Of a stretch of DNA of 64,000 nucleotides, positions 9,350 to 38,378 are shown piece after piece. Below the pieces are notes generated by a model that saw nothing but the letters and a program-made list of their open reading frames with translations, did not search any database and had not been told where the DNA came from. Position 1 is the stretch's first letter, and each line of letters begins with the position of its first letter. Made by a program: the position numbers and the translations under genes. Source of the stretch: Cafeteria roenbergensis (lineage: Eukaryota; Sar; Bigyra; Bicosoecida; Cafeteriaceae); contig VLTN01000003.1 in the NCBI GenBank assembly GCA_008330645.1, forward strand, positions 124,001 through 188,000, written 5' to 3'.

Positions 9350-10556
9350 ATGGCTGACGCCGGTGCCTCCGCTGTTATCCCCATCCGCGCCGGAGAGGTG
9401 AAGAAGGGCGGCCACGTGATGATCAAGGAGCACCCCTGCAAGGTTATCGAGGTGAGTCCTGGCACCTTTCCGTGACGCTCGCCGATTTCGGCCTTGCCGC
9501 AGTTGCCCGCGGCTCCCTCGCGCCCCTCGCTGCTTCCAGGTCGCGGCACCAAGCCCTTTGTCCATCCTCTGTTGCTCCGCTCCTCCCGGCCTCGCTCTGG
9601 GCGCAGGTGACCACCTCCAAGGTGAGCGGTTCGCGTGACCCCCAGTTCCGCTGGTGGTTCTGTCTTGGCACGCGGCGAGCAACTCCTCGCGATTCCAGTC
9701 CCCGTGGGCAGTTTTGGAGACCCGGACTTCTCCCCGAGCCCGGATTTTCGCTTCGCTTGCGGCGCTGGCCCAAGGGTCGCCCGGAAAGCGAGGCTGCTGG
9801 CCCGGACGCAGGCGCGCAAAGAAGCGCCGCCCGTGCCTCGCTGCAGAGCCGCCGCCGCAATTGAAGCTGCGCCCTTTCCTCTCGCGCGCGCCCGTCCCAT
9901 CCGCTGCGCAGACCGGCAAGCACGGTCACGCCAAGGCCAACATCACCGGTGAGCGCGGTCTCCTTCCTCTCCGGTCGCTGCCCGCGCCGGGCAGGCTCGC
10001 AGGCCGGGTTGCTTTGCTTCCACCCTTGCGATCCCTCTCCTCACGGTGGCCGCCCCCCTTCCCCCCCCCCCTCTCTCTCTCCCTCTCTCGCAGGCATCGA
10101 CATCTTCGAGGGCAGCAAGCACATGGACATCTCCCCCACCTCCCACAACATGGAGGCTCCCGTGAGCTGAAGCGTTCCCGTTGCGCTGTGCCTCGCCCGG
10201 CGGTGCCCCCGCCCCAGTCCACCGGCCTGCCTCCCGCGCGGGGGCGCGCGCCATGGTCACACGTGTGGAAGCCGCTCTGCCCGTCTCACCGAAGCCCGCT
10301 CGGAGCCTCTGCTTGTGGGTGCCACCGATCGCCGCAGGTTGTGACCACCACCAACTACACCATCATCGACGTCGGACCCGAGATGTTCGCCACCCTCATG
10401 GACGCCGAGGGCGAGACCCGCGAGGACCTCAACCTCGACATCGAGAAGTACGAGCACCAGAAGAAGGTGCACGAGGAGTTCCTCGAGAAGGGCGAGTGCG
10501 AGGTGCGCGTGATCAAGGCCTGCGGCCGGGAGATGATCTTCCCCCTTGCCGGCTGA
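9350..10556 (+). CDS. EIF5A: translation elongation factor eIF5A, copy 2
   Basis: Five exons, 9350-9451, 9607-9621, 9912-9948, 10094-10161 and 10338-10556, give 146 residues. All exon lengths are identical to copy 1 (102, 15, 37, 68 and 219 bases), including the VTTSK microexon. The start reads MADAGASAVIPIRAGEVKKG, the hypusine loop is TGKHGHAKANITG (Lys 42), and the end is REMIFPLAG. Differences from copy 1 are a few residues near the N-terminus, V for F at the start of exon 5, and E for D in KKVHEEF. Exon 5 is otherwise almost base-for-base the same in both copies, while the introns share no obvious sequence beyond splice sites. Both copies keep every key residue, so both are probably functional. 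Confidence 0.97.
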
Positions 10557-11250: not shown

Positions 11251-14200
11251 ATGGCGGGCGTGACTGGCGCCTGGCTGGCCACGTTCCTGCTGCTCGCAAT
11301 GGCAGTGCTGGCGGCGCCAGCTGACCTCTCGGCGCTCGACCGCGCCTTCGGCGAGGGCTCGAGCGCGCGCGCAGAACTGATGGCGGCGGCTCATCGCGCC
11401 AGGCACGAGCCCATCGAGCACAGGCAGTACAGCGACTCCGGAAGCGTGCTTCTCCAGCTGCGGCGCAGGCAGCGCAGCCACGAGGAGGTGCTGGAGCTTG
11501 CCAACTCTCTCAAAGTTCGCTCAGCAACCTCGCCCGAACACGCGGCCAGGCTAGCCGCGCACGCTGGTGAGAGCAAAGGCGCCAGGCGCGCGCCCTCCTT
11601 CACGGCAGCGCTCGTGCTTGCGCGCTCGGAGCTGGGGGCAGACTTGGTCGCCGCCGCCGCTGCCGCCATGCCTTCCCGAGTCGCGCCGTCTGCTCTCGTG
11701 CCCCCGGGCCTGTCTCTGAGTTGCCCGCCGCAGATAAGCGCCCCCATGTATCGCACGTGGCGCCCGCGGCCGCCCCGTTGACAGGCGGTACGATGATCAC
11801 CGTGTTCGGGCGCAATTTGGACGGCGGCGATGTGTATCGCTGCGCCTTTGGCACGGCGACCTCCCCAGCCACGTTCCACCCCGGAACGGGCGTGGTCACG
11901 TGCGTGGTCCCGCCCATTCACACGGGCCCTGCGGCGTCGGCAGGCGCGTCCAACGCGTCTGCGGAGGCCATCCCCGTCGCAGCGTGGGACGTGTCTCTCA
12001 CGGTCGCCATCGTGTCCCACCACGCGGACCGGCTCTCTCACACGGCCACGCTTCCCTCGCCGTTCCGGCTCTACTCTCCGGCGCTGGCCCTGCCGCGCGT
12101 CAGCCGCGTGGCGCCGCTGGCAGGGCCCTCGGTGGGCGGGACGCGCGTCTTCGTGCAGGGGCGGTTCTCCAGGGCGGTGCCCTACGACTGCGTGTTCGGG
12201 TCGAGGAGGGTTCCTGCCGTGCTGGTGTCGGAGGTGTGGGGCGACGAGGGGGCGGCGGCGGACGCGCACACGGCCGCAAGCGGCCCTTGGCTGGGTCCCA
12301 GCCACGCGGCGCACGCGCCACTGCGGGAGCGGACGGATAACAGCTCGACTGCCGGGAGGCACGGCGTCCCGGGGGCGCGGCTTGCGCAGCCTGATGCCAG
12401 GGGCGACCAAGGCGAGCCGACGCCCGTGCTGCTGCAGCTGGCCTCTTGGCACGGCTCGCAGCACGAGGCGGCCCCGAGCTCTGCCGGGCTCGATTCGCGA
12501 GCGCGAGCGCGGTGGGAGGGAGGGGGAAGCTCGAGGCTACTCGACGCGGCGTGGCGCAGCGGGGGCCGTGGCAGGGGCTTCATGTCGCTGCGAGAGCTGG
12601 AGCGGGCAGTGGAGCTTCACGCGCCCGCAGGCGAGCAAGAGGCGGGGCCGGCGGGGCGTCAGCCGGGCGACGGGGATTCCTCTGCGGGGGGCGCCGGGGC
12701 GGGCGGCGCCCGTGAGATCTACGCCAGCCTGGTGCAGCTGGCAGCCGCAGACGGGCACGGGCGCCACGGCGGCGGCGTTGCTACGGCGGCACGGGACACC
12801 GACGGCAGCCACCATGCGGGCGTGCCGGAGACGGACCCGAGCGGGGTGAGCGCGCGGCGGCTCCACGACGAGCAGCACGCGTCCTTGCTGCAAGCCTTCG
12901 CGGCGGCCGGCCCGGGCCACGGCGGGAGCGGGGGCGAGCACGGGGTGGTGCGCATGGCGACGCTGCGGGAGCTTGAGCGCGGCGGGGTCAAGGGGCCCCA
13001 GGCCGCGCGGCTGGCCGCCCTGGCCAGAATGCACGCGCCGCGCCCCGCGCCGCACTCGCGCGGGCTGGGCCTCGACACGCTCGTGTGCCTGTCACCGATC
13101 CACGCTGTGCCCGGGAGCGTGCGGTTTCGCGTGGTGCCTGCGGGCTGGGGCGACTCGTCTCTCGTTCGTGAGGCTGTTGCCAGCGGCGGCGATGGGGCCG
13201 ACGGGGGCGAGCAAGCTGGGGACGGGGTCGACGCTCTCTCCAGCGCCACTGCCAGCGTCAGGCGCGACCGCGCTGTCGCGGCCCTGAGGAGCAAGCTGGA
13301 GGGCATGATCCCAAAGTCGGCCCTCCCTGCTGCGCTCGGCAGAGCCACGGAGTCGCTCGAGCAGAGCCTGTCGGAGGACGAGGAGCGGTCGAGAACGCGA
13401 TCGGCGGCAAAGGGGACCTTCGTCAGCAAGGCAGACGCTCGCGACCCGACCAAGCCTGTGACGCCGCGCGCGCCGGTGCCCGAGGCGCTCGCCGTGCTGG
13501 CTGGCACCGACCTCTCCTTTGAGTTCTTCGCTCCGCCCTCGGCGGGGGCCCCGGCCCCGCCCGCAGCGAGCGCGGCGGGGGACTCGGCGGTGCGAGTGCC
13601 TCTCGACGTGGCGCCGCCGCGCGGGGCCGTTCCGATGTGCCGCTTCGGCCCTGCGACCGGGCCCGGCAGCGTGGTGGTCCGCGGGGCGTGGGACGACGGG
13701 TTCCGCTCGGTGGCCTGCATCGTGCCGCCGTCGGAGCAGCTGCTCCCAGCCGGCTGGCGGGCCCACCCTGCCTCCCTGCCGCCCGGCCTCCGTCTGGTGG
13801 CCGCCGCCGCGGCGACGCCCGAGCGCCAGGCCCGGCCGCAGCAGGCGGCAGCGCCTTCGCTGCTGCAGCGGCAGGGGGCGTCCGCGGGGCAAAGCCCGCC
13901 GTCCAGTGACGCGGCGTCGGACCTGCAGGACTCGGGCTCTGAGGAGCGGCTGTCGCGCGCGGGCACGGCCCCGTCGGTGCCCTGGGCGGGCGCGGGCGGG
14001 TTCGTGCGGTCGGGCGCACGGGTGTCGCCAGCGCCGCCGCCGCCGGACAGGACAGGCGCCGGGTGGGTTCGCTACGACCGCGCAAGCGACGGGCACTTTG
14101 GGCCGGCCGGCCGCGGCTGGGGCCCGCTCAACAGGGACGGGCAGCTTCCGCCCCTCACGCTGGCCGACGCGCTGGCTTCGGCGGTGGGAGGGGCGGGCGG

Positions 14201-17200
14201 AGCGGGCGGAGGCGGCGAGGCGCGCGGCCGGCCGTCGCCGGAGGACACGGTGCTCGGCGATGGTGCTGGCGCGAGGCCTGTGAGCGACGCGTCGGACGTG
14301 GGGTCGCTCTCGTCGCTCTCGTCAGGCCTGATGGGCTCGAACCTGACGGGGCCAGGCCCGCGCTCCGCGCAGGACCACGACGCAGCGGCCCTGCGCGCTG
14401 CGCTGGGGCCAGACCTGGCGGCCCACGCGCTCGACGCCCAGGCGCGCTCCGCGAGGCCGCTGCCCTCCTCGACCGAGCTCGGGACCGACGCGATGATGCT
14501 GGCTGGCGCGGCCATGGGCCGGCTCAAGCCCGTGCCCCTCCCCTCCAACACCAGCCTGCACCCGCTGACGTCCCCGGAGATGGCTCGGCTGGCGGCGCTG
14601 CGTCAGGGCCTGCTTCGCGCCTCTGCCAAGCTCAGAGCGCCGCTCCAGACCGTGTACGCGGCCGCCAAGGCGCTGTCCGAGACCCCGGCCTCGGAGCTGC
14701 AGGAGCGCGACGAGCTGGTGAGCAGGCTCTGCCTCAGCACTCTGGAGCTCGTCAACGCCACGTGCGAGGGCGGGGCGGTCGCGGCGGTGCTGGGAAGGGA
14801 CCTGCACGGCGCCGGTCACGCGGTGGAGGCTGCCCACTCGCTCGGGTGCCCGGAGAGCGGGCCCATGGGCGTAGAGGCCTTCTTCGCTGCGACGGGCGGC
14901 CCGGACCAGGCTCTGCTGCAGCGAGGGGCCAGCCAGGCCGGGGGCGCCGCGCCGCCCGGCGCGGGAGCACTCGGTACCCCCAGCGGACCACGTTCGGATT
15001 CCGGGCCGGGGAGCCCGCTGTCGCACCAGCAGTGGTCGGCGGCGCGGCGGCCGGAGGAGCTTCCCGAGTACGGTCGCCGGTCCGCCAACCGGCCCGCCCC
15101 CGGCAGCCCTTGCGAGGTGGCCCGGTTCACCTGCGCCACCTTTGGGGTGTTCCTTCGGGAGAAGATGCCGCGGTGCGGCCTGCAGGCCCTCCGCCCCGCG
15201 CCCGCCGCCCGCCCCGCGCGGGCACCGCTGCGCCTCGGCGGCGTCATCGGCCACCCGCCGCTCGAAGTGAGCGTGGCGGTGAGCTTCAACGGCGAGGACT
15301 GGACCCCCGCCTCCAAGCCCCTTCGCATCCACGATCCTTCCTTCGTGAACCTCACCGCGCTGGGGGAGGGCGCCGAGGCCGCAGCCACCACCGTCGCCTT
15401 CAGCCCGACGTCCGGCCCGGCCGCCGGGGGAACCCCGCTGACCATCTCGGGCCTCCCGGTCACGCTGTTGCTGGCGCCCAGCGACGGCGGCAACGCAACG
15501 GGCACCTCGGCCTCGGCTCGGGCTGAGGGGCAAGGCGAGGCCCCGCAGGCGCGGCCGCGCGCAGCGGACGTGCTGCTGCTCTCGCGAACGGTGCCGCTGG
15601 CGGCTGGGGGCGCCGTTACCGTGGGGTGCGAGCTCGGAGCGGCGCGGCTGCCCGGCCGAATCGAGTGGGGCCCTCCCCTTGACGCGGAGGCTCTCGAGAG
15701 CGTGCTTGCGTCCAGGCCCGCCGCGGCCGGGGCTAGGCAGCCGGCGGGCGACGTGCTGACGTCAGCGCTGACGTCGTTCCTCCCGCCAACGTTCTCCATC
15801 GTGTGTGTCACTCCGCCGCTTAGCACGGCCGCGGGGGGGAGCAGGTTCCCCGTGAGCGGCGCGGCGCTCCGGCCGGTGGTGGGCGGCAAGGTGCTCTCGG
15901 ACCTCCCCTTTACGTTCCAGACCCTGCCGCTGGCCGCCGGCGACGCGTGCGTGGTCGCCGACGGGGAGTCGGAGGACGGCGCTGGGCAGGGGGGGGAGGC
16001 GTCCGCGCCCAGGCGGCGGGTCCTCGCGTCCACCCGCGCTCCCCTGGCGGCCACGCTGCACGCCTTTGACAGCCCATGCCCGCCAGGCTCAGCGCGCGCG
16101 CAGGGGGCTGCCGGCGCCGGCCATGCCGCCGCGGCCATCTTCCGCTTCGTCGCCCCCTCCGTGCTGGCGGCCGGCCTCCCCGCCTCGGCCGCTGTCGGGA
16201 GCCCGCTCACCTTGACGCTGGCCGTGCCGGCGTCCAACCCGCCCCCGCTGGACTGCGTGGTCCGCCTCCGCGTTGCCGGGAGGGCCGTGGTGCGGATGCT
16301 GCCCGTGGTGACCCACACAGTGCTCTCTGCTGGCGTTGTCACCACGGGCCAGGGCGCGGCTGCAATGCCGCTCAGCCGGCCCCAGCTGAGCGCCGCGGGC
16401 GCGGCCGGGGCCTTTGACGGCTCTGCCTGGGTGCTGCTGCGCGCAGTGGGGTCCCTCCCGGACCGGCTCGAGCCCGGCAGAGCCGCTCTCGCCGTATCGT
16501 TCGACGGCAGCTTCTTCTTCCCGCTGTCGCGGCAGGTGGCCGACCCGTTCGACCCCCGCCGCGGCATGGACCCAGTCTACCCCACGGCGGGGCTGCGCCC
16601 CGAGATCCCGGCTGAGCTGCTTGCCGGGCCTGCCGCCTGGGCTGCCCTGAGCGCAGAGGCGGCGGACAAGCTGGAGCGGCATATGGACGAGGGCGCCGAC
16701 CTGCTCTGGGCGCAGCTGCAGCCGCGCAGCGGGCCCGGCGCCCCCGGCGTGCGCTCCATCGCCGCCTCGTCGGCGCTGTTCATCCACCCGCACCCGCACG
16801 CGTACGCCGTGGCGCCGACGTCGGCGTCGCCGCAGGGAGGGGACCCCATGGCCGCCGCGATGGTGTTGCTGCACGCCTCGCCGCTGGCCGGGCCCGCTGT
16901 GGGCGGCACGGACGTCACGGTGTTTGCTGTGGGCATCGCCGGGGGCAGGGATTTCATGTGCAGGTTCGGGTCCGTGGCGGTGCCCGCGGCGTTCCGGAGC
17001 GGCTGGTGGGACGACGAGGAGGCCGATGGAGCCGGCGGGTGGGACGACGAGACCGCGGACGCCGTTGGGACGTGGCGGCGCCACGCGGCGGAGGAGGCCG
17101 CCGAGCGGAGGAAGGCCCTTGAGCAGCTGCATGCCAGCGCCTCCGCGTGGGGTCCCGCGGCCGGAGCGGCGCTGCTGCAGCACGCGGCTGCGGGGCGCGA

Positions 17201-20200
17201 GCGCCACCTGGGCGCGCTGGAGGTGGCGTCGGCGGCCAAGGGCGGCGCGGTCTCGCTGGCGGACAGGCTGAGAGCGCACGCTCTCAAGTCCCACACGGCG
17301 GAGCTTGGCGACGCGGCGGTGGTCGGAAGCCGCCATGACGCCTCTGCGGGGTGGGTGGAGGGCATGGGGCTCACGGAGCTGGCTGCGCTCCGGTCCGGGA
17401 AGCTGAACTGGACGCTGTGGGACCTGGAGGCGGAGCGAGCGGCGCAGTGGCGGGCGCACGGGGAGTCGCTCGCGTCGATGCGCCGGAGCTTCGTGGGCGA
17501 CGGGTCTGACGGGGACGGGGGGGTGCACCCCGCGCAGTCGCTGCTGCAGCGCCGTGCGGAGGTCGCCACGGCGCGGCCTGCCCTCGATGCGGCTGTGAGC
17601 CGTCAGCGAGCCCGGCGCAGGAACAAGCTGCTGCAGCCCGGCCCGGGGGCTCTGCCGGGCAGGCACCGACTGGAGTGCCGCGCTCCGGCGGCGCAGGGCG
17701 GCAGGGCCGGCCGCGCTGCGCTGGCGGTGTCTATGGACGGAGGGCAGTCGTGGATGGGCCCGCTGGGCGACGCGCCCGGCGGCAGCAGCAGCGGCGCCTG
17801 GGCGCAGTCGGCCGAGGCGGACGGCCGCCGGCCGCTGACGTTCGAGTACCAGCCCGCGCTGACGGCAGGCGCGCTCGCGGTGGCGGGCAGCCCGTCTGCC
17901 CCTGTGGAGGGCGGCGGCGTGATCCGGGTGGTCCGCCCTGCTCTGCAGGCGTCGTTGCAGACCCCCCACCCCGCGGCTGAGGCGCAGGTGGGGAGCGGCG
18001 CCCCGTTTGGGGCCAGCGTGGCGGGCGGGCCCTTGCGGCCTGTGGTGTCGGCGCGCGACTCTCTTGTGGACCCGCGCGCCTCATCGGCTCTGCCTGTCGA
18101 CGTCGGCGACGAGGGCGGGGTCACAACTGTGGCGTCTGCCAGCGCGCCGCTCGGCGCTGGAGCGTTTGCCAGCGGCGTTCCCGGCGCGCTGCGCTGCCGG
18201 TTCGCTGGCCTCGTTGAGGTCGAGGGCGTCGCAGGAGCTGGTCCTGACGCGGGCGCGGTGCTCTGCCCGACCCCGTCGCTCAGCGAGCTGGCTTCGGCGG
18301 CATCGGCGGCGGCGGCGGCGGCGGCGGCGGCGGAGGCGTCTGGCCCGTTGGCGGCTGGCGGGGAGGCCCTCCTCGCCGCCTCGGTGCAGACGACGGAGGC
18401 AGAGCCCAAGGGCGACGCTGCAGACCCGTCGGCGCCGCTCAGCGAGCGGGAGGCTGCCGCTGTGCTTGCCGTGGCGGGGTGGGAGGGGGTCGGCCTGCGC
18501 TCGCTTGCAGGGGCCGGGCAGGCTGCAGCGGACGCCGCCACGGGCGCGCTGGGGAGGGGCGCCCCCGTGCTGGTGGTGCGCGCTGCGCTGGAGGTGAGCG
18601 TGAACTCTGGCGTGGACTGGACCGCCGTCGGGGGCGAGGGCGACGGGCCCGCTGCAAGCCTCCCCGGCCCCCGCAGCGGGGCCGGAGGAAGCGCCGTGTA
18701 CGCGGTGCCCGCGGGCGACGTCGAGGCTGCGGAGCTGTGCGAGAGCGGGGCAGCGTCTGACCCCGCCTCTTCGCTCGGCAGAGCCTGCAAGGGCGCTGTG
18801 GCCAGGGCCTCTGAGGACGGCGCGGCCGCGACGCCCCGCTTCGTGCCCGAGACCGCGCCGATGGAGGGCGGCACGCGCATGGCCGTGTGGGGCGCCGCCG
18901 GGGCCCTGCGGGCGGCCGCGCGCGCCGCCGGCGTTCGCATCCACGGCGACGGCGACAAACGCGTCGGGCGACACCGAGAAGCGAGCGTGTGGTGCGTGTT
19001 TGGGGACCTGCCCGTGCCGGCCACGTGGACCAGCCTGGCCGGCTCAGCGCCCGCCGGAGGCGCGCTGGCCGGCGAGCAGCACGCCCAGGACGTGGCGGCA
19101 GCGCTGGGAGGCGACGCCGTCGTGTCCTGCCAGGTGCCGTCGCTCGCCGCAGCGGCGACAGCGTCGCTGGCGGGCGGACCCCGCTTTGCATTCGACTCGC
19201 GCGGCGCCGCCAACGCGTCTGTGGACCGCGGGACGCGAGCGGCGCTCGAGGGCACTGCGGGCAGCAGCGCCGACCTTGCCGCCGGAGGCGGTGGCAGAGC
19301 GGCAGAGCTGGTCGCCGAGGCACTTCGCCGCGCGGGACCTGTGCGTCGCGCTATGGAGGCCAGCGGTTTCGTGTTTGGCGCTGAGCGGGCGGCTGCCAGG
19401 TCCGGGGTGCTATTCGCGGGCACACGCGCAGAGGCCGAGAGGGCGGGCCCTCCGCTGGGCGCCTCGTTCGTGCAGCGGGGCGCGAGCGACCGGAGCGGCG
19501 CTGCGGAGCGCGCGGGGCACTTTGCGCCCCTCGCGTCTCACGCCTCGGTGCCGGTGGCATTGCTGCTCACCGCGCCGCGCCGCGCAGTGTCTCGCGCCAT
19601 GGATGCCGCGGGGGCGAGGGAGAGGGCTGCTTACCCCAAGCTGGAGGCAGCGGCGCGGCGCCTGCTCCCAGCCGACGCGCGGATTCCCGCGGGCGTGCCG
19701 GGCGGGGACGCCCTGTCAGGCGCCGACGGCGGCGTGGTCGTGCTGGCCAGGGTCTCCCCCCTCCCCGGAGGTAGCTCCTCGGCCGCCGCCGTGGCGGCCG
19801 CGGCGGCTGCCTCTGTGCCCCGTGCCGGCCACAGGCCGGCCTCTCACCCCCTGGCCGCCCACGCCGCCGCGGCTCGTCTGCGCTACGTGCCGCGCGTCGC
19901 GCCAATTGCGGCTTCCAAGGCGGTTCTCAGCTCGGCAGAGCCCACCCGCGTGCGGTTTCGCGTGGCGAACGCCACGGCGGCGGGGTTCTCGCCCCTCGGC
20001 CTGCTCTCGGCCGCCGCGCTCGCCCGGCTGCCCGGGTCGGCATCGGCGGCCCTGCCCGCGTTCGGCGGGAGCGCTGCGGCTCGCGGCCCGCTGCAGGCTG
20101 CGGGCGTCGGCGCGGGCGCTGCTAGCATGCGCGTCCGACCCGACAGCCTGTTCATCGCGGAGCAAACGCCGCTGCGTCTGCGCGTTGGGGACACCGTGAC

Positions 20201-23200
20201 CAGGGCTCTGCCGCGGTTTCACCGCGCGGCCGGGCAGAGCATGGACGCAGTGCTCCCGCCAGTCCCCGCCGGCGCCTTCCTCGTGACAGCATCCGCTGAC
20301 GGGCAGGAGTGGCAGCCCCTTCGCGCAGACCGCTGGGCCATGGGTTCCGATCGCGTCGCTGGAGGGCACCCTCGCGGCGCCGGGGCAGGGGGCGCACCGG
20401 GCGGCGCGGGCGCGGCTGCGGGGGGAGGGGACCAGGCGGGCAGCCTGGGGCCGGCGAGCGTGATGCTGGGCTTCGACGGCGAGTCCGCTTGGCGGTTCGG
20501 CTGCGTGGTCGCGCCGCGCGGGTGGCGGACGGCGCTCGAAGCCAGGCGCGAGCGAGCGCGTCTCGACCGGATTCGGGCCGGGGACGGCGCTGAAGCCCGT
20601 GGCGACACGTCTGGCGGGAGCACCAACTCCACCTCTGCCTCCTCCTCGTCCTCCTCCTCCTCATCGTCGCTAGAGTCCGCAAAGGCGCTGCTGCGGCTGC
20701 GCCAGCTTGCTGCCGGTAGCGGCACCGCGCTTCCCAGGAGCGCCCTCCGCGGCCTGGGCGTGGACGTCACGAGCCTCGGGTCCCTCTCCCGCTCACCCGC
20801 CTTCGACGCCGCGCTTGACGCGGCGTTCGGCGGCGCCTCGACCTTGCAGGCTTCGCTCCTGCAGACGGCGGCCGCGCACGGCTCTGCCCACGCCACGGCG
20901 CTGGCCCACGCGGCAATGGGGAGCCTCGCCAAGTCGTCCTTGGGGCGCGACGGGGCGGACCTGGCCGCGCACGCAGCCACGGCGCAGGCGACGACGTCGA
21001 CGCCCGAGGACTTGCCAGGCCCGGCCCTTCCCGATGCGGGCGCAGTCCGCTGCTACTACCGCGGGCCGCTGGCGTCGGCGCCGCTGCACCTGTCCGGCGC
21101 AAAGGCGGCATCGCTCCCGTCCGCGCTACGCGCGGCGCTTGGGCGGGGGGAGGCTCTCGGCGTGCGGGTAGGCGAGCTGCGGGCGGAGGTGGAGGTGCCC
21201 GTGGACGCGCCCCAGCAGCCCCGCTCGGCCGACGGCACCGCCGGTGGGGACGATGCGGCAGAGCCCTCCCGCCCCGGTCCAGGCGGCCGGCTGCGCGCCG
21301 GCAGGCTGGCTCTGCTGTCTGTTCCGCTCCGCCCGGTCAAGGCCGAGGGCTCGGCTCTGTGGTTTGCGGACCTGCCGCTGTCTGCGCTCGACGCCACCCA
21401 CCGGCGGGCCGGCGCCGGGGGCTCGCTGTGGTTCCACCGCGTGACGGCGGCCGCCAGCGTGGTCGGTCGCAAGCACGGCGAGGCTGTCGCCGACGCCCGC
21501 CGACTTGCAAACTTCAGAGTGACCGATGACGGCGCCGGCCGCGGCTGGGAGGTGGACGTCTGGCGCCAGCCCTCGACGTTCACCCCGGACCTGGTTCGGG
21601 AGCTGGGCGGGCCCAAGGCGGTGGCGGCGCACGCTGTGCTCTCCGCGCGGGCCGCTAGGTCGCTCATGCGCGACGCGTCGCTGCCGCTGGTGCTGCTGCC
21701 GGCGTTTGCTGCGTCGCCCTCGCAGCGGCACGTGGCTGGGTCTGCCGACCGCGGCACGTTTGGGGCCGTCGGCGCGGTGCTGCCTGCGTCCCTGCTGCAG
21801 GTGGCGTCTGCATCCGAGCACCTTGCTGCCGGGGCGGGGACCGCTGGTCGCCGGCGGCTGGGAACTCCTACCGCCGCCGTTCACGACCACGCCTCGTACC
21901 ACGCCGGTCTGCTGGCGCCAGCGGCCCGCTTCCGCGACACGGCCGGGGCACCGGACCACAGGTTGCTCCGCCGGCTCCCGGCCCACGCTGCTCCGCCTTC
22001 GCTGGGGCTGCGCGGCGGAACCCTGTTCGCGCCGCTGAGCGCAGAGGCCTTTGCCACGTCGTACGCCCGGACGCTGGCCGAGAGCCGTCGAGTGGCAGGC
22101 GACGCGGCGCCCTCCCCGGCGCTGATGCGGGGGGGCGGCGACGCCCGGCGGCTGGGACGCGTTCTTGTGGCGCTCACGCTGGACGTTCCGCTCCCGCCGC
22201 CGCCCCAGGGCGCCACGGCGGAGGAGGCGGCGGCGGCCGAGGCGGAGTCGCGCGAAGTCGTACCCAAGGACATTCTGCCGTCGCTTCACGTGGCCGGGGG
22301 AGGGCCGCCGTCGGCGCTTGCGGCCCTGCCGCCGGGCGGCCCGACGACGGGAGCGGGGTTGGCTCACCTGCCGGGCTCCGCAGCGGCCCAGCCGCGGGCA
22401 AACGTCCGACCGGTGGGCGCGCACGCAGCTGTGTACGGAGGGCGGGCGGTCCCGGACCGCGTTGCCTGGGGCGGGCAGGCTGCCCCGGTCAGCTGGTACG
22501 CCGCTGGCGTCGAGACCATGTCGGTTGTGGTGCGGGCGTCCTGGGGCGGCGACGACCTGGGCGGCGCTGTGCCGGGGTCCACCATGCCCGCCCCCGAAGA
22601 GGATTTCCTCGCGGAGGAGGACGGCGGGCCGGGCGGCGCCGTCACCTTCGTCGCGCCTGATCTGAGCGCCACCATGCTGGTCGCGGCAGAGGCGCCGGGC
22701 CGCCCTCAGCGGTCCTTCCCGCTCAGCAGAGTGTCCGTTGCAGTGGGCCTCCAGGCCCTGGTCGCGCCTCTCCACGCAGGCCAGGGCGCCGACGACGCCT
22801 CGCCCGCCGCAAGGTCTGCGGGCACGCTCGGGGGCGCGGGGGCCACGTCTCGCGGGTCCGCTCCGCCCTCGGAGGACCTTTCAGCGCCGGAGCGCAGCGT
22901 GCTGGCGGCGGCCCCGGTGGCGTGGTCGCCCGAGACTGCCGGCGGCTTCGACATCGACGTGCGAGTGACGCCGGACCGCGGTTCCACCCTCTCTCCGCTC
23001 GTGCGGCGCCGGGGCCCGGAAGGCAAGCAGCCTGGCGTCCCGGGCACGATCCGCCTCGAGGCGCCCGTGCTGATGGCGCTTCGGCTCGACCCGCGGTCCA
23101 TGGCCGACACCCCGGTCCCGTTCCCGCTCGCGCTCGGCGCGCGCCCAGCGTTCGACGCCTCCGTAGCCTCGGACGTCGAGGGCGCGACCGGCGTGCCGGC

Positions 23201-26200
23201 GCACCGGCTCACGGTGCTCTCAGCGTCGGCGTCGTCGGGAGTGGTGGTCGTGCGGTGCGTGGGGTCGCTCGACCCCACGGAGCCGTCGTGCGGCTCTGCC
23301 AAGGACGCGCTGCAGGCTGCCGTGGCTGACACCGGCTCCGCCCTGCACGACGGCGTGGTGGGCTTCAACGCCGACCCCCTGTTCAACAAGGGGGGCCACG
23401 GGGAGGTCACGTCCAAGGGGGTCGTGGTCGCGGGCACCTGCAGCAACCCCGCGTTGCTGACGCGGAGGGAGTGCGAGTCGGTGGGCGAGTGCAGCTGCGA
23501 CGACGTCCGGCGCGACGACCCTGCCGCCTGCGAGCGCTCGGTGTCGATGAGCGGCCAGCCGTGTCTGTTTTCGGCGGAGCACACTTGGACGCCGGGCGCG
23601 AGGCGCGTCAAGTTCGCCGGCTGCACCGACCCGCGCTTCAAGAGCAAGGCGGCATGCTTGGCCGCTGGCAAGTGCTCCGACCCCAAGCTGCGCTCCAGGG
23701 AGGCCTGCCTGGCGCCCGGCGTGTGCCTGCCGCCCAAGGACAAGCGCGGCCCCGGGATGAACACGGTTGGCCGGCCCGTTATGGACTTCACGCAGTTCCG
23801 CACCAGGCAGGAGTGCATCGACCCCAAGGCGCGGTCAGAGGGCGGGGGGCGCTGCACCACGTCGCCCGGCAGCAACGACCCCGTGTACCCCTGCTTCCGG
23901 CACAGGGAGAAGCAGCCCTGCGAGAGCCCGCCGCACCGGCCCAAGCTTCCCGGCGAGCACGCGTGCGTCCGGCCGCCGGGCGGGGTGCCGTTCGACTACA
24001 CGCAGTTCACGACCCGGGCCCAGTGCGAGCAGCCGGCGCTGCGCGACTGCGCCGCGGTCGCCCGCCGCCACAAGGTGCTCTTTGGGGATACGGCCTTCCA
24101 GGGGGCCAGCCGGCCGTTCTTCCTTCAGACCGGCGCGACCGCCGCTGGCCTGCCACCGGTTGGCGCCATCTCGGGGGCTCGCGCGGAGGACTTGCTTTCG
24201 CCCCCGCCGCCTCCCATGCAGCCCTCGTTCGGCTTCCCAGCAGAGCGCGAGCCAGCCTCTCGCGAAGCCGTGGGGGCTGCGCTGGAGGCCTTGGGGAAGC
24301 TGCGCCCCGGTGAGGCGGACGGGAACGGCCTCACGTCGGCCGTGCGGTCCAAGCTGGCCAAGGGCAGCGCTGGGGCGGCGCCAGACTCGACAGGCCTGGA
24401 GGGCGTGGACACGGAACCGGGGCAGCCGGAGGGAACCGGCTCCGACGGCGCAGCGGCTTCCGACGGGGCGGACAACGGACAGGGCGGCAGCGGCAAGGCT
24501 GCCAAGGGCAGCGCGCAGGAGGGCGCCGGCCTCCCGGCCAGGCCCGGGGCGTCGCGCCCGGCCTCCGATAGCGCCTCCGCTGTGGTTCAAGGGAGCGACT
24601 GCGGTCCAAAGGGCATTTGGGCGCCAACATCGTCGCTTCTGGCCAAGGGCCCCGTGTGCGTGTGGCGCCCGGAGGAGAAGACTCCCCCGTGCAAGTTTGG
24701 CCAGCCGCCCCCCTGCATCCGCGACATCGACAGCGACGAGATGGATAGGCAAAAGGACGAGGACCCCGGAGACTGGGTCACGCCCAACAACTTTGACTCA
24801 ACCAACGACTGGAAGGAGGACGGCACCACGACGGAGGAGCCGTGCCCGTGCGAGTGGCCGGCCAACAAGTATCACCTCAAGAAGTGCAACTGGTGGAAGT
24901 GCGGCCCGGGGTCCCAGGTGAGCCGCGTTGTGGCGCCCCCGAGAGTCTGCCTGCTGACGAGTCATGCCTGCGCCAGCCCTCTCGTTCTCGAGCGACAGCG
25001 TGCCACGGATGGCGTGCTTGCAAAGCGCTGCCAGCCGCGCGCGGTTGCCGCGTCCGACGCAGCTGCGGTGCGCTCCGTCCACGAGTCGCTTCTGGAAGCG
25101 TTGAGAGCGTGTTGTTGGTCGCATTCCCCGACTCCGCCTGTGTCCCCTCCCACCCCCCCTATTGCCTTGCCTCACCCGCAGAGCGCCAGCGCTGACGGCC
25201 AGATTGACTACTACCGCCAGAAGCAGCCAAATGAGGTGAGCCGTCCGCTGCTGCTGGCCAAGCCGGCGCCGCTGCGATGGCATGTTGACGAGTGCCGGCA
25301 GCGGGCCCGCGCCACGGCTTGCGGGGTGTGATGCTTTGCCGCGGTGCTTTTCGTGACCGCAGATGGTGTCCGACTACAACGCCATGGTCAGCGTGGGCGG
25401 CAGCAAGCTGTGGATGACCATCGACACCTCAACCTCCACGACGTGGGTCATGTCCATGGCCTGCTTCACCGTCGGCTGCTCCAAGGTCAAGATCTACGCT
25501 GGGGCATTCATCCCCGCCCTCCCGCCGGGCCCGTTCCCCATTGACCTGCTCGAGGCCGGCCTGTTCCAGATTCTCTCCATGGTGGGGATCAACGGGCACA
25601 CAATGGTCAACGCTGGTGAGAGCGCCGCTTGTCCGCCGTTGAGGCTGCCCAGGCGGGCCCGCGCTTGGCTCGGGCGAAGGAGCTCCGCTCTGCCCTCAGT
25701 GCTCGATCTCCTCCCTTTGCGCGCTGCTGCTGCGTTGTTGGGCCCGCAGGTGCCTCTGTGATGGGCGCCCCGTTTATGTTCGGCATCCTGGACCTGGGGA
25801 CGATCAACCCCATGGCCTTCAACCACTCTGGCACTGTCGGCCTCGGTGAGCTGGCTTGGTCGTCGCGCGCCGTTCGCCCCGTTCATGCCGTTGTTGCGCC
25901 GCGCGAACGGCGGAGCGGACATGCCTGCGCTTGGCAGCCTTGCCACTCGACCTGCCTTGCAGTGCCCGCCGTCCCATTCCCGCCATGCGTCGCGCAGCCT
26001 ACTGGGAGGACAACTGGCCGTGGCAAATGGTCATCATGGACCCGATGCTCTCGGTGCTGGACTTCCAGCGCTGCGGCAACACGTTCTACCCCATCCCCAT
26101 GGTCCCGGTGCCCATCCCCAAGACGTTCCAGCTGTGGGCAATCCCGCCCGCGTTCCCTGGCGGCGTCACGCTCAAGGTGGCGTTCTTCTTCGGAGACACG

Positions 26201-29200
26201 GGAGGCTGCTACTTTGTCAACGGCGTGCCCGGCCAGTTCGCCAGAGCGGGGATGAAGCGGCTGATGATCATGCCGACCCCCGGCATCAAGTTCCTCACGC
26301 CGTCGTGGATGTTCATGATCACCGGCCTCAAGATCGGCGGGGCCAGCCTCTCCCCGTGCCTCATCCCAGCGCTCTGCCGTGGCGTCTTCACCACCGGGTC
26401 GTTCTCCACGTCTGGCCCGCTCATCCCAGTGCTGACCATGCTGGAGGCCGTGGCCGCGCCGCTCACCTGCGAGCACCTGGAAATTCTCCCGTCCATCACG
26501 TTTAACATCATGGGCTCGGGCTTCAAGCTCGAGCGGCAAGACTACACGATCCTGGGCTTCTCCTTCGACAGCGTGCAGTGCATGACCGCCTTCACGCCCA
26601 TGGCGCAGCTCATTCCAGGCATGGACCTCTGGCGCCTCGGCGACAGCTTCGTCCGCGCGTACTACCTCCAGATCGACATCCAGCCGATGCGGTCCGCCAA
26701 GCTCGGGCTGGCCGACCAGCCCTTTTACGAGAAGAACGGCTGCTCTGGCACGGGCGGCGTGGGCCCCGTTGCCAAGTACAAGAAGAAGACCTCTGAGACC
26801 GCTGGCAAGAAGGGCTCGGACGCCACGGCGTCCGCCACCAAGGAGCGCGGGTCGAGCAAGGCCAACATGTTCTGGAAGCGGCGCCAGAACTGGGAGGACG
26901 ACCTCAAGGGGATGAAGGACAACCTCAAGCCCAAGGACGAGGACGACTGCTCGGCCTCGCCCGCGGGCGGCGCCCGCTTCCGCAGCCTGGGGGGCAAGTG
27001 CGTGCCTCGCAAGCACCACCCCGAGATGGGCAGCCTCCGCGATCGGCAGAGCTCCATCTCGGGCATGATCGAGGCGCACCGGGAAAAGATTGACGGGTGG
27101 AAGGAGGGCCGGTACCACGGCGCCAACGGCGAGGAGGACGCGGACGCGTGGCTGGACGAGGAGGGCGACGAGGAGGAGGAGGGCGAGGCCCACGGCGACG
27201 CCGGGGTCGGCGGCCCCTGGGATGACGCGGAGGAGCTGGCGAAGGCGCGGGAGCGGGCCGACGAGGCGCTGCACCGCACCGCGGGCGGGGCGTGGCACGG
27301 AATTGGCCGGGACAGCTCGGCGGTGCCGTCCCAGGAGGGCGTGGCGCCCAGCGCGGACGTCAACCTTGCCTCGTCGTACTCTGCGCAGTTCTTCGGCGAG
27401 CAGGAGCGCGGCGGCGCCGGAGCGCTCCTGCAGGAGCAGGGAACTGCCCGGGACGGGCAGGGGCGGCGGCTGCGCGGCCACCGCCGAGGGCGAACGGCTG
27501 CAGGGGTGCTCGCGCCCACGCAGGACGAGGCGGCGCCCGCCGGCCTGTCGGGCGACTCGGCGTTCCACGGCCGCGGTGTGGAGCAGCCCACCGGCGTGGA
27601 CCTCTCTCGCCCTCTTCCCGCTCGCAGCCTCGACGCCGACGCCGGAGCCGACGGCGCGACCGCACTCCCGCTCGTGTCGCACGCCGAGCTGTTGGATGCC
27701 GTGAGGTCGCCGACGGAGCGGGAGCGCCGCTCCGCCGAGGCGGTGCACCGGGCGCTTCACGGGGCCTTCGACGTCGACGGGTTCCTCGGGGGGCTGGTGG
27801 CGCGCGACAACGAGGTTCAGTCCGCCCAGGAAGAGGAGGACGCGGAGGAGGCGCGGCTGGGGAGGAGCGGCGAGCAGTGGAGCGTCGGCGCGGAGGAGGG
27901 GCGGCTAGTGGGGCGGCTGCCGCCCCTGGACCAGCTGCAGTGGCCCAACGTGTCCGCGCTCAGCCGTGGCACGCTCCTCGCCATGTACAGGCGCGACGTC
28001 TGTCGCAGGCACAGCGGCAGCGGCAGCGGCAGCGGCAGCGGCAGCGGCAGCGGCAGCGGCAGCGGCAGCGGCAGCGGCAGCGGCAGCGGCAGCGGCAGCG
28101 GCAGCGGCAGCGGATCCGAGGCGGATCGGCCGCTTCCCCGGCTGTGTACGCAGGATCCGGTGCCTCGCGCACAGGGCGCGACCGCGGCTGCCGCAGCTCG
28201 CAACAACAGCTTCGCGCTGCCCAGCGCGGTGGAGTCGCGCCTTGACGGGCTGTCGTCGGGAATGTGGACGCTGCCGGACGAGCTGCGCGCCTGGCTGCTG
28301 GCCCGCACGCCGGCGACGGCTCCGCACTTGCACGCCGACGTGGACAGGGCGGCAGGGCTGAGCTCGGAGGCGGCAGGCAGGGCCAGCGATTTCATGCGCG
28401 TCCACACAGCCGTCGCCTTCGTCGAGAGCCAGGCCATGCAGGAGCGGCGGCGCCGGGAGAGGCTGCGCCTCGGCGTCGAGCCGGAGGAGTCGACGATGCC
28501 GCCGCTGCCTCGCCGGCAGAAGCGGCGAGGCGGAAGGCGCTCCGGCGCCTGGGCCCCGCACGCGGACCCGTACTACCGGGCGCTCGGGTACGGCAAGGCG
28601 TCCTGTGCGCACAAGCACCCTGACTTCGACCCCGCCTCCAGGCCCAGCTCGCGCCACGGGCTGGCCTACACGCGAGGCGGGGACATGATCGGCTGCACGC
28701 GGGACGGCGACCCCGTGGTGCTCCCCGTGCTGATGCAGGAGACGAGTAACGCGGCAGAGGAGGCCGCCCTGATCCGGAACATGAGCGCGGTGATGAAGCA
28801 CCTCGAGGCTGCGATGAACGTGAGCGACGCGTCGTCGCGGCTCTACTGGCGCGGCGAGAGCGAGGGCTTCGTCCTGCGCGAGACGCGGCGGTGGCTGCTC
28901 AGGTACCGGCGCCAGATTGAGCAGGCGCAGGAGACTGCGGCGGCGCACACGCTGCTCTCCAGGCAGCACAAGGAGGCGCTGCGTGCGTATGCGATGCGCG
29001 AGACGACCGACCCCGCGCAGCTGCTGAGCTCCATCAGGACCGCGCTGGCCAGGATGGGCGACGGGTCTGTCGTGGATATTGCCGCCCCGGCCGATGCACA
29101 CGGCGGGGACGCGGCAGTTGCAATGGCGGCGATGATGCAGGACGGCTTCGCCGGCGACAAGCGCCTCAAGTCCCGTGGCAGCAGCGACGGCGGGGACTGG

Positions 29201-29842
29201 CGAGAGCGTCAGAGGGGCAGCGTGGAGAGCGACTGGGACGCGCTGGAAGGGGTCAGGCACCGGGCAGCACCGCCCGGGTCCCTCCGGGCCTCCGGCGGGG
29301 GCGTGTACCCGTTCGTGGACACCCCGGACATAAAGGACATGGAAGAGGCGGCAGCGCGCGAGGCGGCGGAAGAGGCCGCGGCGGCCGCGCAGGAGTCCAA
29401 CCTGGACACAGCGGGCGAGGCACTCAAGCTGCTGGACACGCTAGTCACCACGGCGGCGAGACAACGCAGCGAGCGCGCGTCACGGGGCGCGGAGGACGCG
29501 CGCGGCAGTGCCATGGCGGCCAAGCTCGTTCGTGGGGACGACGGGCAATGGCGGCTTGAGAGCAATCCGGACGCGCGGGCTCCAAGCTCCGATGCTGCAG
29601 GAGAGGGGCCAGGGGCATCGCTCTTGCAGCGGATTGGCCGGGACCGCTATCGCAGCCTGTCCACGCAAGACGAGGGCTCGCTGGTCCGCGTGGCGGCCCT
29701 TGAGGCTCTCGAAATGCTCCACGCCATGCACGCCGAGGCGCTCAGCGAGCACGTGGAGTCGCTGAGGCGGCAGCTGCGCGCCGCCGAGGCCGACTTGGCG
29801 CGGGAGGAGGCTGCCGAGGCCGAGCGGGCGCGACTTGCTTGA
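11251..29842 (+). CDS. giant secreted IPT/TIG-domain protein with Cys-rich repeats and a degenerate pepsin-like domain
   Basis: Six exons, 11251-11566, 11734-24917, 25182-25235, 25363-25615, 25750-25845 and 25998-29842, join in phase to give 5,915 residues. The start was chosen for its signal peptide (MAGVTGAWLATFLLLAMAVL). IPT/TIG-type immunoglobulin folds are seen at about residues 111 (VAPAAAPLTGGTMITVFGRN), 225 (VAPLAGPSVGGTRVFVQG), 1326 (FSPTSGPAAGGTPLTISG), 1819 (ASPLAGPAVGGTDVTVF) and 2479 (APMEGGTRMAVWG), with long Ala/Gly/Ser-rich linkers between them. Cys-rich repeats fill about 4008-4211, and another Cys cluster precedes 4500. Residues about 4510-4870 form an aspartic-protease-like domain. 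The last 980 residues are low-complexity with a Gly-Ser repeat and an acidic helical end. No transmembrane helix is obvious near the C-terminus, so secretion or a cell-surface or scale role is inferred. IPT giants in protists are often surface proteins; the function here is unknown. Confidence 0.82.
23439..24050 (+). other. Cys-rich tandem module within the giant IPT protein
   Basis: Residues about 4008-4211 hold at least five related units built on C-S/T-D/N-P...R/K-x-x-C-x5-C: CSNPALLTRRECESVGEC, CTDPRFKSKAACLAAGKC, CSDPKLRSREACLAPGVC, then the degenerate FRTRQECIDPKARSEGGGRC and FTTRAQCEQPALRDC. The regular spacing suggests disulphide-bonded extracellular modules. I cannot assign a named family. 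Confidence 0.6.
25182..26706 (+). other. pepsin-like (A1) domain with lost second catalytic Asp, inside the giant IPT protein
   Basis: The domain is spread over exons 3-6. The N-lobe shows DYNAMVSVGG and IDTSTSTTWVMS, the place of the pepsin motif fDTGSSxLWV; Asp 4539 is kept but DTG has become DTS. SGTVGLG sits where the family has DGIlGLG. The C-lobe shows CRGVFTTGSFSTSGP at 4761-4775 where the family has C-x-A-I-V-D-T-G-T-S, so the second Asp is Thr 4766. Then come LEILPSITFNIMGSGFKLER and LWRLGDSFVRAYYLQ (family: lWILGDvFLRxYY). The fold assignment is well supported; loss of protease activity is inference from the missing Asp. Confidence 0.75.
28013..28112 (+). repeat. (GGCAGC)n hexanucleotide repeat coding for Gly-Ser
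   Basis: About 100 bases of nearly perfect AGCGGC/GGCAGC repeat, some 16-17 units, in frame within the last exon of the giant IPT gene. It encodes alternating Ser and Gly, a flexible linker. The purity suggests recent slippage and likely length variation between strains. Confidence 0.95.
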
Positions 29843-30143: not shown

Positions 30144-31672
30144 TCACGCCTGTGGCAGGCGGAAGTCGTTGATCTTCGCCTCGACCTTTGCGGTCGCCGT
30201 GGCGAGCTCTTCGGGCGTTGCGGGAGGTGGCGACCTTCCGACCTCGCACTTGTTGATTCCTGCCGCATCTTCGCCGTACATGTGGCCGACCCCCGAGCGT
30301 GTGTTGCACTGGATAGAGCGCCCCATGCTGACGATGTAGTGGAGCCAGAAGCTGGGCATGTAGAGAATTTCACCGGCCCTCAGCACTGTCTCCACGGCCT
30401 GGGCCTTGTCCAGCTGCGCAGCCGTTTCCGGGTCAGAAATGGCCTCGGGGTCCGAAAAGTCGATGCCAGCGTGCCTCCGGGACGGGCCGGAGTGCATCAT
30501 GTCCATCGCTGTGCACGCTGCCGGGGGGTTGATCACGTAGCGCTTCATGCCGCGCAGCATGTAGATGAAGTTGCGGTGGCCATCCCAGTGCTGCTCCGCC
30601 ACGACGCCGCGCATGCCGAACCGGCAGTGCTGGCCCCGCACGTCCGTCGGCTCGGGGATGAACAGGTCGCGAGTCGGCGCGTCCTTTTCGAACAGGTTGA
30701 TGTCCCTGCTGATCATCGTGTCTCCGGCGCCCTCCCACGAGTCGCCAGTGCTCAGGTACAAGTGGCGGCTCTCGGCGTCCTCGTTGGGCGGCTTGGCCTT
30801 GTTCGCCTCCTCCAGGGCCGCGGATTCCTCCCAAAACTTGGCGAAGGACATGGGGAGCGGCACCGGCGGGGGGTGGTCAAACGTGTAGCCGCGCGGCTTG
30901 AACGCGTTGCTGGCCTGCTTCGAGGAGCTGTAGCCGTTGGCGGGCCGCAGGCTCTTCTTCAGCTCCTTGGCCATGGCGTTGCTTTGGTAGAACATAAAGT
31001 GCCCGTTGTGGGCCGTGTTGATCGTGTAGCTCTTGCGGGAGCTCATTCCCTCAATCACGTAGTCGTCGTCCGCCCATTTCTTCGCGACCTCGTCCTGCGC
31101 GCGCGCAGAGAGGACCCACAGCGCAAAAGGGGCCGGAGTTTCAGGAGACTACGAGGGGTGGAGGGGGGGGAAAGGCAAGGGCGCACGCGCCGCGCTTTGC
31201 CCGGCGGTCTGGTTCCCGCAAGCGCGGCGGGCAGGCGCACGCGAAGCCCCCGAGCGCCGCGCAGCGCGCCGCCCCAGAGCCCGAGGCGCACCAGCTCGGG
31301 CATGTTCTTGATCTTGAAGGGGATCTCCAGGTTCCGCAGCTCGGTGGCGCGCTCCATTGCGCCCTCGGTCGCCCAGTCGATGACCTCGAGGGTGTCGAAC
31401 TTGGAGCCTCCAGCGGGCTCCGCCGGGTCGTCCGGGTTCCACGCCAGGAGGACGTCCAGCATGCTCGCGAACTTGGGAAGGTTCTCGGCGTAGCCCTCGG
31501 GCGGCGCCGCGTCGGGGTGCCGCTTGTCGGTCGCCAGGGAGGCGGACGCGAGCCCGCGGAATGCCGCCGGCAGTCGCGCAGCGCCGCCGGCAACCACGGA
31601 GGCCGAGGCCGCCAGGGCCGCGGCCGCCAAGCCCACGCCCACCAGGGCCATCTTGCGGTAGCTCGGGCGCAT
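30144..31672 (-). CDS. JmjC/cupin-8 type 2-oxoglutarate oxygenase with N-terminal membrane anchor
   Basis: Two exons on the minus strand, 31672-31292 and 31094-30144, give 443 residues; the 197-base intron has a GTGCGC donor and GCGCAG acceptor. The N-terminus MRPSYRKMALVGVGLAAAAL is a likely signal anchor. Residues around 115-140 read IPFKIKNMPELDEVAKKW, typical of the start of JmjC proteins (a pass-through to a W-x-D-x-Y strand). The iron-binding set is complete: QHWDGHRNFIYMLRG with H296 and D298, and ILYMPSFWLHYIVS with H379. Such enzymes hydroxylate proteins or demethylate them using 2-oxoglutarate, oxygen and Fe(II). There are no PHD or chromatin-reader domains, so it is more like small cupin-8 hydroxylases than histone demethylases. 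The anchor suggests a secretory-pathway location, which is inference. Substrate unknown. Confidence 0.85.
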
Positions 31673-38044: not shown

Positions 38045-38378
38045 GCCCGTGAGTGGGCCGAGCGCGGTGGCGTGCCGGCCTCACTGCAGAGCTTTTGGCA
38101 TTCGTGTATGGCGCGCGCGCGAGCGCGCGAGCGCGCGGGACCGTGTCGGGCTGTGAGCGCGCCAAGGCGTGTGAGCACTGCGCGAGGCGCGGCCGGGAGG
38201 GCCTGGGTAAAGGTCAGTCTGAAACAGGACTTGGGAGACTTACGAATTTCGGCACACGTTCAAGCGCGGGGCTTGAGCGGATGGGTCGGCACCCAGCTGC
38301 GGCTACCAGCGACCGCGCAGCAGTCCCAGCAAGGGCTGGGCTCCTCAGTAGCGTGTCTGGTCTATGCCGGGGCGACAC
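38045..38378. other. intergenic region upstream of CDIN1
   Basis: About 330 bases between the CDIN1 start and the gp210 stop, both on the minus strand. It contains an alternating GC/CG-rich purine-pyrimidine stretch at about 38107-38140. It presumably holds the CDIN1 promoter and gp210 3' UTR. No gene is seen. Confidence 0.4.

What the first reader, a model, noticed from the sequence alone, without database searches (positions are those of the whole stretch)
11251..29842. Giant IPT/TIG protein fused to a pepsin-like domain that has lost its second catalytic Asp
Spliced exons place signal peptide, at least five IPT folds, Cys-rich repeats and an aspartic-protease-like fold in one chain of about 5,915 residues. 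The pepsin core is recognisable (SGTVGLG; LWRLGDSFVRAYY) but DTG is DTS in lobe 1 and TTG in lobe 2. I know of no described family with this IPT plus pseudo-pepsin layout. A binding or structural role of an inactive protease fold at the cell surface is inference.
Basis: partly seen in the sequence, partly recalled or inferred. Interest (0 to 1): 0.8.

Follow-up and report, generated by a model that had tools for sequence, protein, structure and literature searches.

The report
Giant secreted protein with dead pepsin
A single-celled marine predator (most likely Cafeteria) appears to make two giant secreted proteins, each combining sticky immunoglobulin-like domains with a pepsin-like domain that has lost a key cutting residue yet is the best preserved part of the protein, which suggests that the dead enzyme was kept for binding rather than digestion.

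Summary
Confirmed and strengthened. The window gene (11251-29842, +) encodes about 5,915 residues in six exons: putative signal peptide, five IPT-like stretches (two weak), a Cys-rich block and an A1-pepsin-like domain. The decisive new evidence is a full-length paralogue in the same genome (C13:35355-50258) with the same layout in one uninterrupted 4,968-codon frame, so the fusion does not depend on the splice model. In both copies lobe 1 reads DTS; the lobe 2 Asp is Thr in one and Ala in the other; no flap Tyr is seen. All six other A1 genes found in the genome keep both aspartates. The dead domain is the best conserved part (73% identity against 40% overall; dN/dS 0.21, lowest of nine segments). 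Assembly statistics match Cafeteria strain BVI. Best reading: a secreted matrix or adhesion scaffold whose pseudo-pepsin binds a protein partner; the function is inferred. Pseudo-pepsins and giant IPT proteins are each known; my paper searches found no description of the combination. New variant of a known kind.

The parts
11251..11566 (+). Exon 1: putative signal peptide (about residues 1-22) and a conserved RRRQRSHEEVLELANSLKVRSATSPEHA motif
   Evidence: strongest hydrophobic stretch of this protein at residue 4; at E up to 1 the motif was found only here and in the C13 paralogue
11734..24917 (+). Exon 2: IPT-like domains, long low-complexity linkers, conserved segment, Cys-rich block
11742..11930 (+). 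IPT/TIG domain 1 (Pfam PF01833, over cut-off)
12093..12245 (+). IPT/TIG domain 2
   Evidence: 21.3 bits with a profile from other genes; shuffle maximum 2.7
15390..15707 (+). Degenerate IPT domain with long insertion (weak)
   Evidence: 4.9 bits un-iterated, 20.4 after adding both proteins' own hits; Pfam 20.2 bits against a cut-off of 20.9
16869..16997 (+). IPT/TIG domain
   Evidence: 14.8 bits un-iterated; no Pfam match at E up to 1
18831..19163 (+). Degenerate IPT domain with long insertion (weak)
   Evidence: 4.3 bits un-iterated, 42 after adding own hits; no Pfam match at E up to 1; core CVFGDLPVPA here, CMFGDLPVAA in the paralogue
23043..23378 (+). Conserved segment before the Cys-rich block (SEA-like by recall only); holds a decoy DTGSA
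   Evidence: 51% identity to C13; no Pfam match at E up to 1
23439..24044 (+). Cys-rich repeat block
   Evidence: 52% identity to C13, no other match in this genome at E up to 0.001; no Pfam match
24588..24917 (+). Second Cys-containing module directly before the pepsin-like domain
   Evidence: Residues 4391-4500
25182..25235 (+). Exon 3: start of the pepsin-like region (QIDYYRQKQPNE)
   Evidence: alignment with C13
25363..25615 (+). Exon 4: lobe 1, IDTSTSTTWV (Asp codon 25423-25425), Cys pair CFTVGC, flap region without Tyr
25750..25845 (+). Exon 5: rest of lobe 1, up to the VGLAY segment
25998..26746 (+). First part of exon 6 (exon ends at 29842): family-specific insert WEDNWPWQ...FPGG, lobe 2 with TTG in place of DTG (Thr codon 26390-26392), LWRLGDSF segment
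26747..29842 (+). C-terminal tail, largely low complexity, with a conserved segment at 28604-29056

Best explanation
A giant secreted scaffold protein of a bicosoecid flagellate. IPT-like domains and Cys-rich modules form an extended extracellular chain, and a catalytically dead pepsin-like domain towards the C-terminus serves as a protein- or peptide-binding module in an adhesive matrix or cell coat. Shown by sequence: one chain (directly in the paralogue, by splice model here), signal-peptide-like start, domain order, loss of catalytic residues, strongest conservation in the dead domain, two paralogues. Inferred: extracellular location, absence of activity, binding role, adhesion or matrix function.
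For: One chain: the C13 paralogue has IPT, Cys-rich and pepsin-like parts in one 4,968-codon frame. Dead enzyme: the lobe 2 Asp is Thr here and Ala in C13, lobe 1 is DTS in both, and no Tyr lies between Y57 of the domain and the AYW segment, while 6 of 6 other A1 genes found in the genome keep both Asp. Homology: Pfam Asp E 2.4e-12 here and 5.6e-16 in C13; lobe 1 of C13 alone E 4.8e-4; 46 distinct PDB sequences at E up to 0.01, all named in the listing as A1-type proteins such as cathepsin E, pepsin and renin. Cys pairs CFTVGC and TCEHL...QCMTAF align with all four relatives; VGLAY and LWxLGDxF segments are recognisable. Selection: 73% identity in the domain against 40% overall; Nei-Gojobori ratio 0.213, lowest of nine segments. 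Secreted: hydrophobic N-terminus in both copies, no hydrophobic C-terminus. Adhesion: in the Cafeteria expression study, IPT-domain genes are enriched among genes upregulated in stationary phase and filed under cell adhesion (PMC7852580, section 13 read in full); that is a class, not this gene.
Against: No transcript, proteomic, localisation or structural data for this gene. Synonymous sites are near saturation (dS 1.06 to 2.11), so the ratios rank segments only. Lobe 1 is a weak match to solved structures (11.0 bits, i-Evalue 1.4 for cathepsin E). The hydrophobic-hydrophobic-Gly motifs are altered (TVG or VVG; RLG or GLG). Flap Tyr is not a strict mark even here: the C54 gene, with both Asp, has Phe there. 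C13 has an internal hydrophobic segment stronger than its N-terminal one. Two of the five IPT stretches are weak. No partner is known.
Confidence: 0.55

Rival explanations
1. Two separate adjacent genes (an IPT gene and a pepsin-like gene) joined wrongly in the splice model.
For: The frame changes between the parts, no transcripts were available, and the pepsin region holds four of the five introns in about 1.1 kb.
Against: The C13 paralogue joins the same parts in one frame without an intron; the two proteins align across all four of those junctions; the 88 codons of intron 2, although open, have no counterpart in C13.
Confidence: 0.03
2. A pseudoprotease that regulates proteolysis: the dead pepsin cleft captures inhibitors, propeptides or substrates of active secreted peptidases (own or bacterial) and acts as a decoy or sink.
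For: Pregnancy-associated glycoproteins are said to include inactive members that retain binding specificity (passages of PMC6221303). Six other A1 genes with both Asp are present in the genome.
Against: A family-specific insert of about 55 residues and the missing flap Tyr suggest a remodelled cleft; nothing links the protein to a protease.
Confidence: 0.2
3. A precursor cut into several mature chains, so that the IPT part and the pseudo-pepsin part act apart after secretion.
For: A recurring [SAV]LLQ tetrapeptide: 11 in this protein against a shuffle mean of 0.42, and 8 in C13 against 0.43; 3 of 12 LLQ sites here share an alignment column with one in C13 and two more lie within 14 columns.
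Against: No protease is known to me that uses it here; 7 of 12 sites have no near counterpart in C13; composition shuffles do not exclude repeat expansion.
Confidence: 0.15
4. The domain is still an active aspartic peptidase, with a displaced catalytic Asp in the conserved FFFGDTGGC.
For: The lobe 1 Asp and the following Trp are retained, and FFFGDTGGC is invariant in both copies.
Against: That DTG lies 65 residues before the aligned site and aligns with the strand IGPTGGMVTFGDID of the active relative C6; the lobe 1 Gly and the flap Tyr are lost too.
Confidence: 0.04

Closest known systems
Peptidase family A1 (pepsin, cathepsin D/E; Pfam PF00026)
   Same: Both lobes recognisable, Trp after the lobe 1 motif, Cys pairs, VGLAY and LWxLGDxF segments
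   Different: DTS in lobe 1, TTG or ATG in lobe 2, no flap Tyr, altered hydrophobic-hydrophobic-Gly motifs, conserved insert of about 55 residues, embedded in chains of 4,968 and 5,915 residues
Inactive A1 homologues: cockroach Bla g 2 and pregnancy-associated glycoproteins
   Same: A1 sequence family without (or presumed without) proteolysis; Bla g 2 is among the PDB matches. Described as inactive with unknown function (passages of PMC9541408) and as partly inactive yet retaining binding (passages of PMC6221303)
   Different: By recall these are single-domain animal proteins of pepsin size, without IPT or Cys-rich modules
Giant IPT proteins of the same genome, and fibrocystin-L-like proteins
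   Same: IPT/TIG domains in very long open frames; the Cafeteria expression study lists IPT and G8 under cell adhesion and fibrocystin-L under signal transduction
   Different: Among the listed matches, no IPT frame other than the window gene and C13 also holds an A1 match (150 of 250 TIG candidates were scored)

Membership tests
Active peptidase family A1 | Catalytic Asp in both lobes (DTG or DSG) | tested here: not met
   Lobe 1 DTS; lobe 2 TTG here and ATG in C13. Other A1 genes found in the genome: 6 of 6 have both
Active peptidase family A1 | Flap Tyr | tested here: not met
   No Tyr between Y57 of the domain and the AYW segment in either copy. Caution: the flap alignment is loose, and C54, with both Asp, has Phe there
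A1-like fold (homology) | Significant profile match over both lobes | tested here: met
   Pfam PF00026 E 2.4e-12 (C13 5.6e-16), two stretches each at E up to 1; C13 lobe 1 alone 4.8e-4. Lobe 1 against cathepsin E is weak
A1-like fold (homology) | Three Cys pairs (assignment recalled) | tested here: met
   First and third pair align with 4 of 4 relatives; the second (CLIPALC) has a like pair in C6 and in cathepsin E, none in the two C8 genes, and is half hidden by filler in C54
A1-like fold (homology) | Hydrophobic-hydrophobic-Gly motifs | tested here: inconclusive
   TVG (VVG in C13) and RLG (GLG in C13): second hydrophobic residue and Gly kept, first often not
A1-like fold (homology) | Predicted three-dimensional fold | not testable with these tools
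   Structure prediction switched off
IPT/TIG proteins | IPT/TIG domain over Pfam cut-off | tested here: met
   41-42 bits against 20.9; C13 part 40.9 bits
Fibrocystin-L (PKHD1L1) family | G8 and other beta-helix domains and a C-terminal membrane anchor (recalled) | tested here: not met
   Pfam scans of the two long frames at E up to 0.1 show only TIG and Asp; last 60 residues not hydrophobic

The most novel reading that the evidence does not exclude
A peptide receptor made from a dead digestive enzyme: in a bacterivorous flagellate the pepsin cleft has become a recognition module on a giant extracellular fibre that binds prey or matrix proteins, a domain combination not described before.
Probability: 0.15. 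Interest if true: 0.7.

Novelty: new variant of a known kind. Interest (0 to 1): 0.5.

Why it matters
It documents a protease-like domain that is held by selection although catalytic residues are lost, in a giant, probably extracellular protein of a heterotrophic stramenopile. The intron-free paralogue shows the architecture without transcript data, and the two copies carry different replacements (Thr, Ala) at the same catalytic site. If the domain binds a partner, it would add a protist example to the pseudo-pepsins; for one of them, Bla g 2, the function is stated to be unknown (passages of PMC9541408).

Tried and rejected
Relatives elsewhere: two scans of viral contigs and one of genome contigs for the pepsin-like domain confirmed no relative. 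These collections are viral and prokaryote, so this says little about other protists.

A third family member: the C-terminal segment gave a weak match on C27 (E 0.0016, one stop inside). In the 8 kb fetched around it, tblastn with either full protein gave nothing better than E 0.30: taken as chance.

Alternative acceptor of intron 1 at 11631: it is open and its global alignment score with C13 is higher (115 against 80, fewer gaps), but its extra residues match C13 no better than shuffles (123 of 500 as good). Left open, 11733 preferred.

Decoy motifs: DTGSA near residue 3971 and FFFGDTGGC were considered as catalytic sites and rejected by position and alignment.

Segmental duplication: none of 24 flanking ORFs of C13 matches the window at E up to 1e-4. 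Retroposition or intron loss for C13 was not resolved.

Literature on IPT or TIG with aspartic protease or pepsin: searches found 0 papers; one search found 138 papers with two of three terms, of which the 10 listed had no 'TIG domain'. Terms with a slash cannot be searched, so 'IPT/TIG' written that way may be missed. sought pseudo-pepsins and Cafeteria context; one search was too loose to be useful.
Full report
Where it is. The window lies in a genome of 36,303,456 bases in 167 contigs. Size and contig number agree with Cafeteria roenbergensis strain BVI (170 contigs, 36,327,047 bases, 70.1% GC; passages of PMC6972860); the window itself has about 0.69-0.77 GC in 2-kb steps. The identification rests on assembly statistics, not on a named record. 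That paper reports on average 1.67-1.89 introns per gene, so a spliced gene is unremarkable there.

Observation. Two long open frames carry a Pfam TIG match and a Pfam aspartyl protease match. The five introns begin GTGAG and end CGCAG. Four of the five fall within about 1.1 kb around the pepsin-like region. Third-position GC is 0.78-0.92 by exon, intron GC 0.68-0.74. The gene has no N. The first intron has a second possible acceptor, 34 residues earlier, that I could not exclude.

The decisive control. Searching the whole genome with the Pfam family Asp gave 15 matches that I read as 8 genes, and with TIG 144 matches, 150 of 250 candidates being scored. Among the listed matches only two genes hold both: the window gene and C13:35304-50258. 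The C13 copy is one frame of 4,968 residues from its Met at 35355, with a hydrophobic start, IPT domains, Cys-rich block, pepsin-like domain and tail in the same order. It aligns with the window protein over 4,563 residues at 40% identity. Queries with the Cys-rich block, the N-terminal motif and the segment before the Cys-rich block found these two genes only. The pepsin-like domain as query found these two and, weakly, three ordinary A1 genes (two on C8, one on C54; E 2e-4 to 0.006). A weak third match to the C-terminal segment did not hold up.

IPT domains. A profile from 11 IPT domains of other genes in this genome found five stretches in the window protein and four in C13 above the best of 200 shuffled sequences (2.7 bits). 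Three window stretches are firm (30.2, 21.3 and 14.8 bits), two weak (4.9 and 4.3). After adding the two proteins' own hits eight window stretches score above 13 bits (shuffle maximum 3.5), but that count is partly circular. Three other window frames gave nothing above zero bits. Pfam itself sees one domain over its cut-off and one just below, and none in two of the segments that the profile finds. 'At least five' is thus acceptable, with two of the five weak.

The pepsin-like domain. Pfam Asp matches the spliced domain at E 2.4e-12 and the C13 domain at 5.6e-16. A profile of both hits 46 distinct PDB sequences at E up to 0.01, led by cathepsin E and including cathepsin D, pepsin, renin and Bla g 2. 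The alignment with cathepsin E puts the DTS motif on the lobe 1 motif and CRGVFTTGSFSTSGP (printed as the profile consensus) on CQAIVDTGTSLITGP; the lobe 1 part of that alignment is weak (11.0 bits). The second catalytic Asp is Thr here and Ala in C13. The lobe 1 Gly is Ser in both, and no Tyr is present where the flap Tyr would be. Retained are the lobe 1 Asp and Trp, the first and third Cys pair in line with four of four relatives, a second Cys pair like that of C6 and cathepsin E, and VGLAY and LWxLGDxF segments; the first hydrophobic residue of the two hydrophobic-hydrophobic-Gly motifs is not kept throughout. All six other A1 genes found in the genome keep both aspartates (two on C8, C6, C54 and C30; C21). 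One of them, C54, has Phe in place of the flap Tyr, so that loss alone would not mark a dead enzyme. An insert of about 55 residues rich in Trp and Pro, absent from the four relatives aligned, follows lobe 1 and is 40 of 56 identical between the copies.

Selection. The domain is 73% identical between the copies. Nei-Gojobori counts give a ratio of 0.213 in the domain against 0.289 to 0.573 in eight other segments. Synonymous change is near saturation, so this is a ranking. The pattern is constraint, not decay.

Location and function. A hydrophobic N-terminal segment is present in both proteins; signal peptide is my reading from hydropathy. Neither C-terminus is hydrophobic. The window protein has no other segment near that strength (next 1.62 against 2.12); C13 has one at residue 2798 (2.05) without a like segment here, so a membrane span in that copy cannot be excluded. 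A secreted protein is the simplest reading. In the Cafeteria expression study, genes with IPT domains are enriched among those upregulated in stationary phase and are filed under cell adhesion (PMC7852580, passages, section 13 in full). That table concerns classes, and I did not see this gene in it. I therefore favour a secreted adhesive or matrix scaffold with a pseudo-pepsin binding module (0.55). Rivals are a protease-decoy role (0.20), a processed precursor (0.15), a still active enzyme (0.04) and separate genes (0.03).

Comparison with what is known. As a peptidase it fails the defining test of two Asp and should not be filed as an active A1 enzyme; as an A1 homologue it passes the sequence tests. 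Inactive A1 homologues are known in animals (passages of PMC9541408, and PMC6221303). Long IPT frames are common in this genome. What appears new, as far as four paper searches go, is the combination. No eukaryote protein database could be searched, so unannotated orthologues in other protists would not surprise.

Limits. No transcripts, no structure prediction, no other strains. The fold is supported by sequence profiles only, and activity was not measured.

Noticed in passing
Window gene and C13:35355-50258: A tetrapeptide [SAV]LLQ recurs: 11 in the window protein and 8 in C13 against shuffle means near 0.4; 0 in four other window frames and 0 in parts of two other IPT giants, 2,666 and 1,999 residues.
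   Followed up: partly
window 38379-48173 (-): A 3,264-codon frame matches NUP210 Ig-like domains 1 and 2: a gp210-like nuclear pore protein, longer than usual by recall.
   Followed up: no
window 9639-10556 (+): eIF-5A match at residues 234-300 of a 305-codon frame, upstream of the giant gene.
   Followed up: no
window 5922-7529 (+), 36926-38080 (-), 31662-35849 (+): Matches to an axonemal dynein assembly factor (DNAAF11-like) and a TPD family protein, and to C2H2 zinc fingers.
   Followed up: no
window 53302-61800 (-): A 2,832-codon open frame without a Pfam match at E up to 0.001.
   Followed up: no
G000:C10:653999-673322: Two very long IPT frames (8,336 and 2,007 codons) with IPT units repeated 837 bases apart; those read are nearly identical, which suggests a recent tandem expansion.
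   Followed up: no
G000:C13:35355-50258: The paralogue has no intron where the window gene has five; its flanking ORFs share nothing with the window at E up to 1e-4, so retroposition and intron loss are both open.
   Followed up: partly
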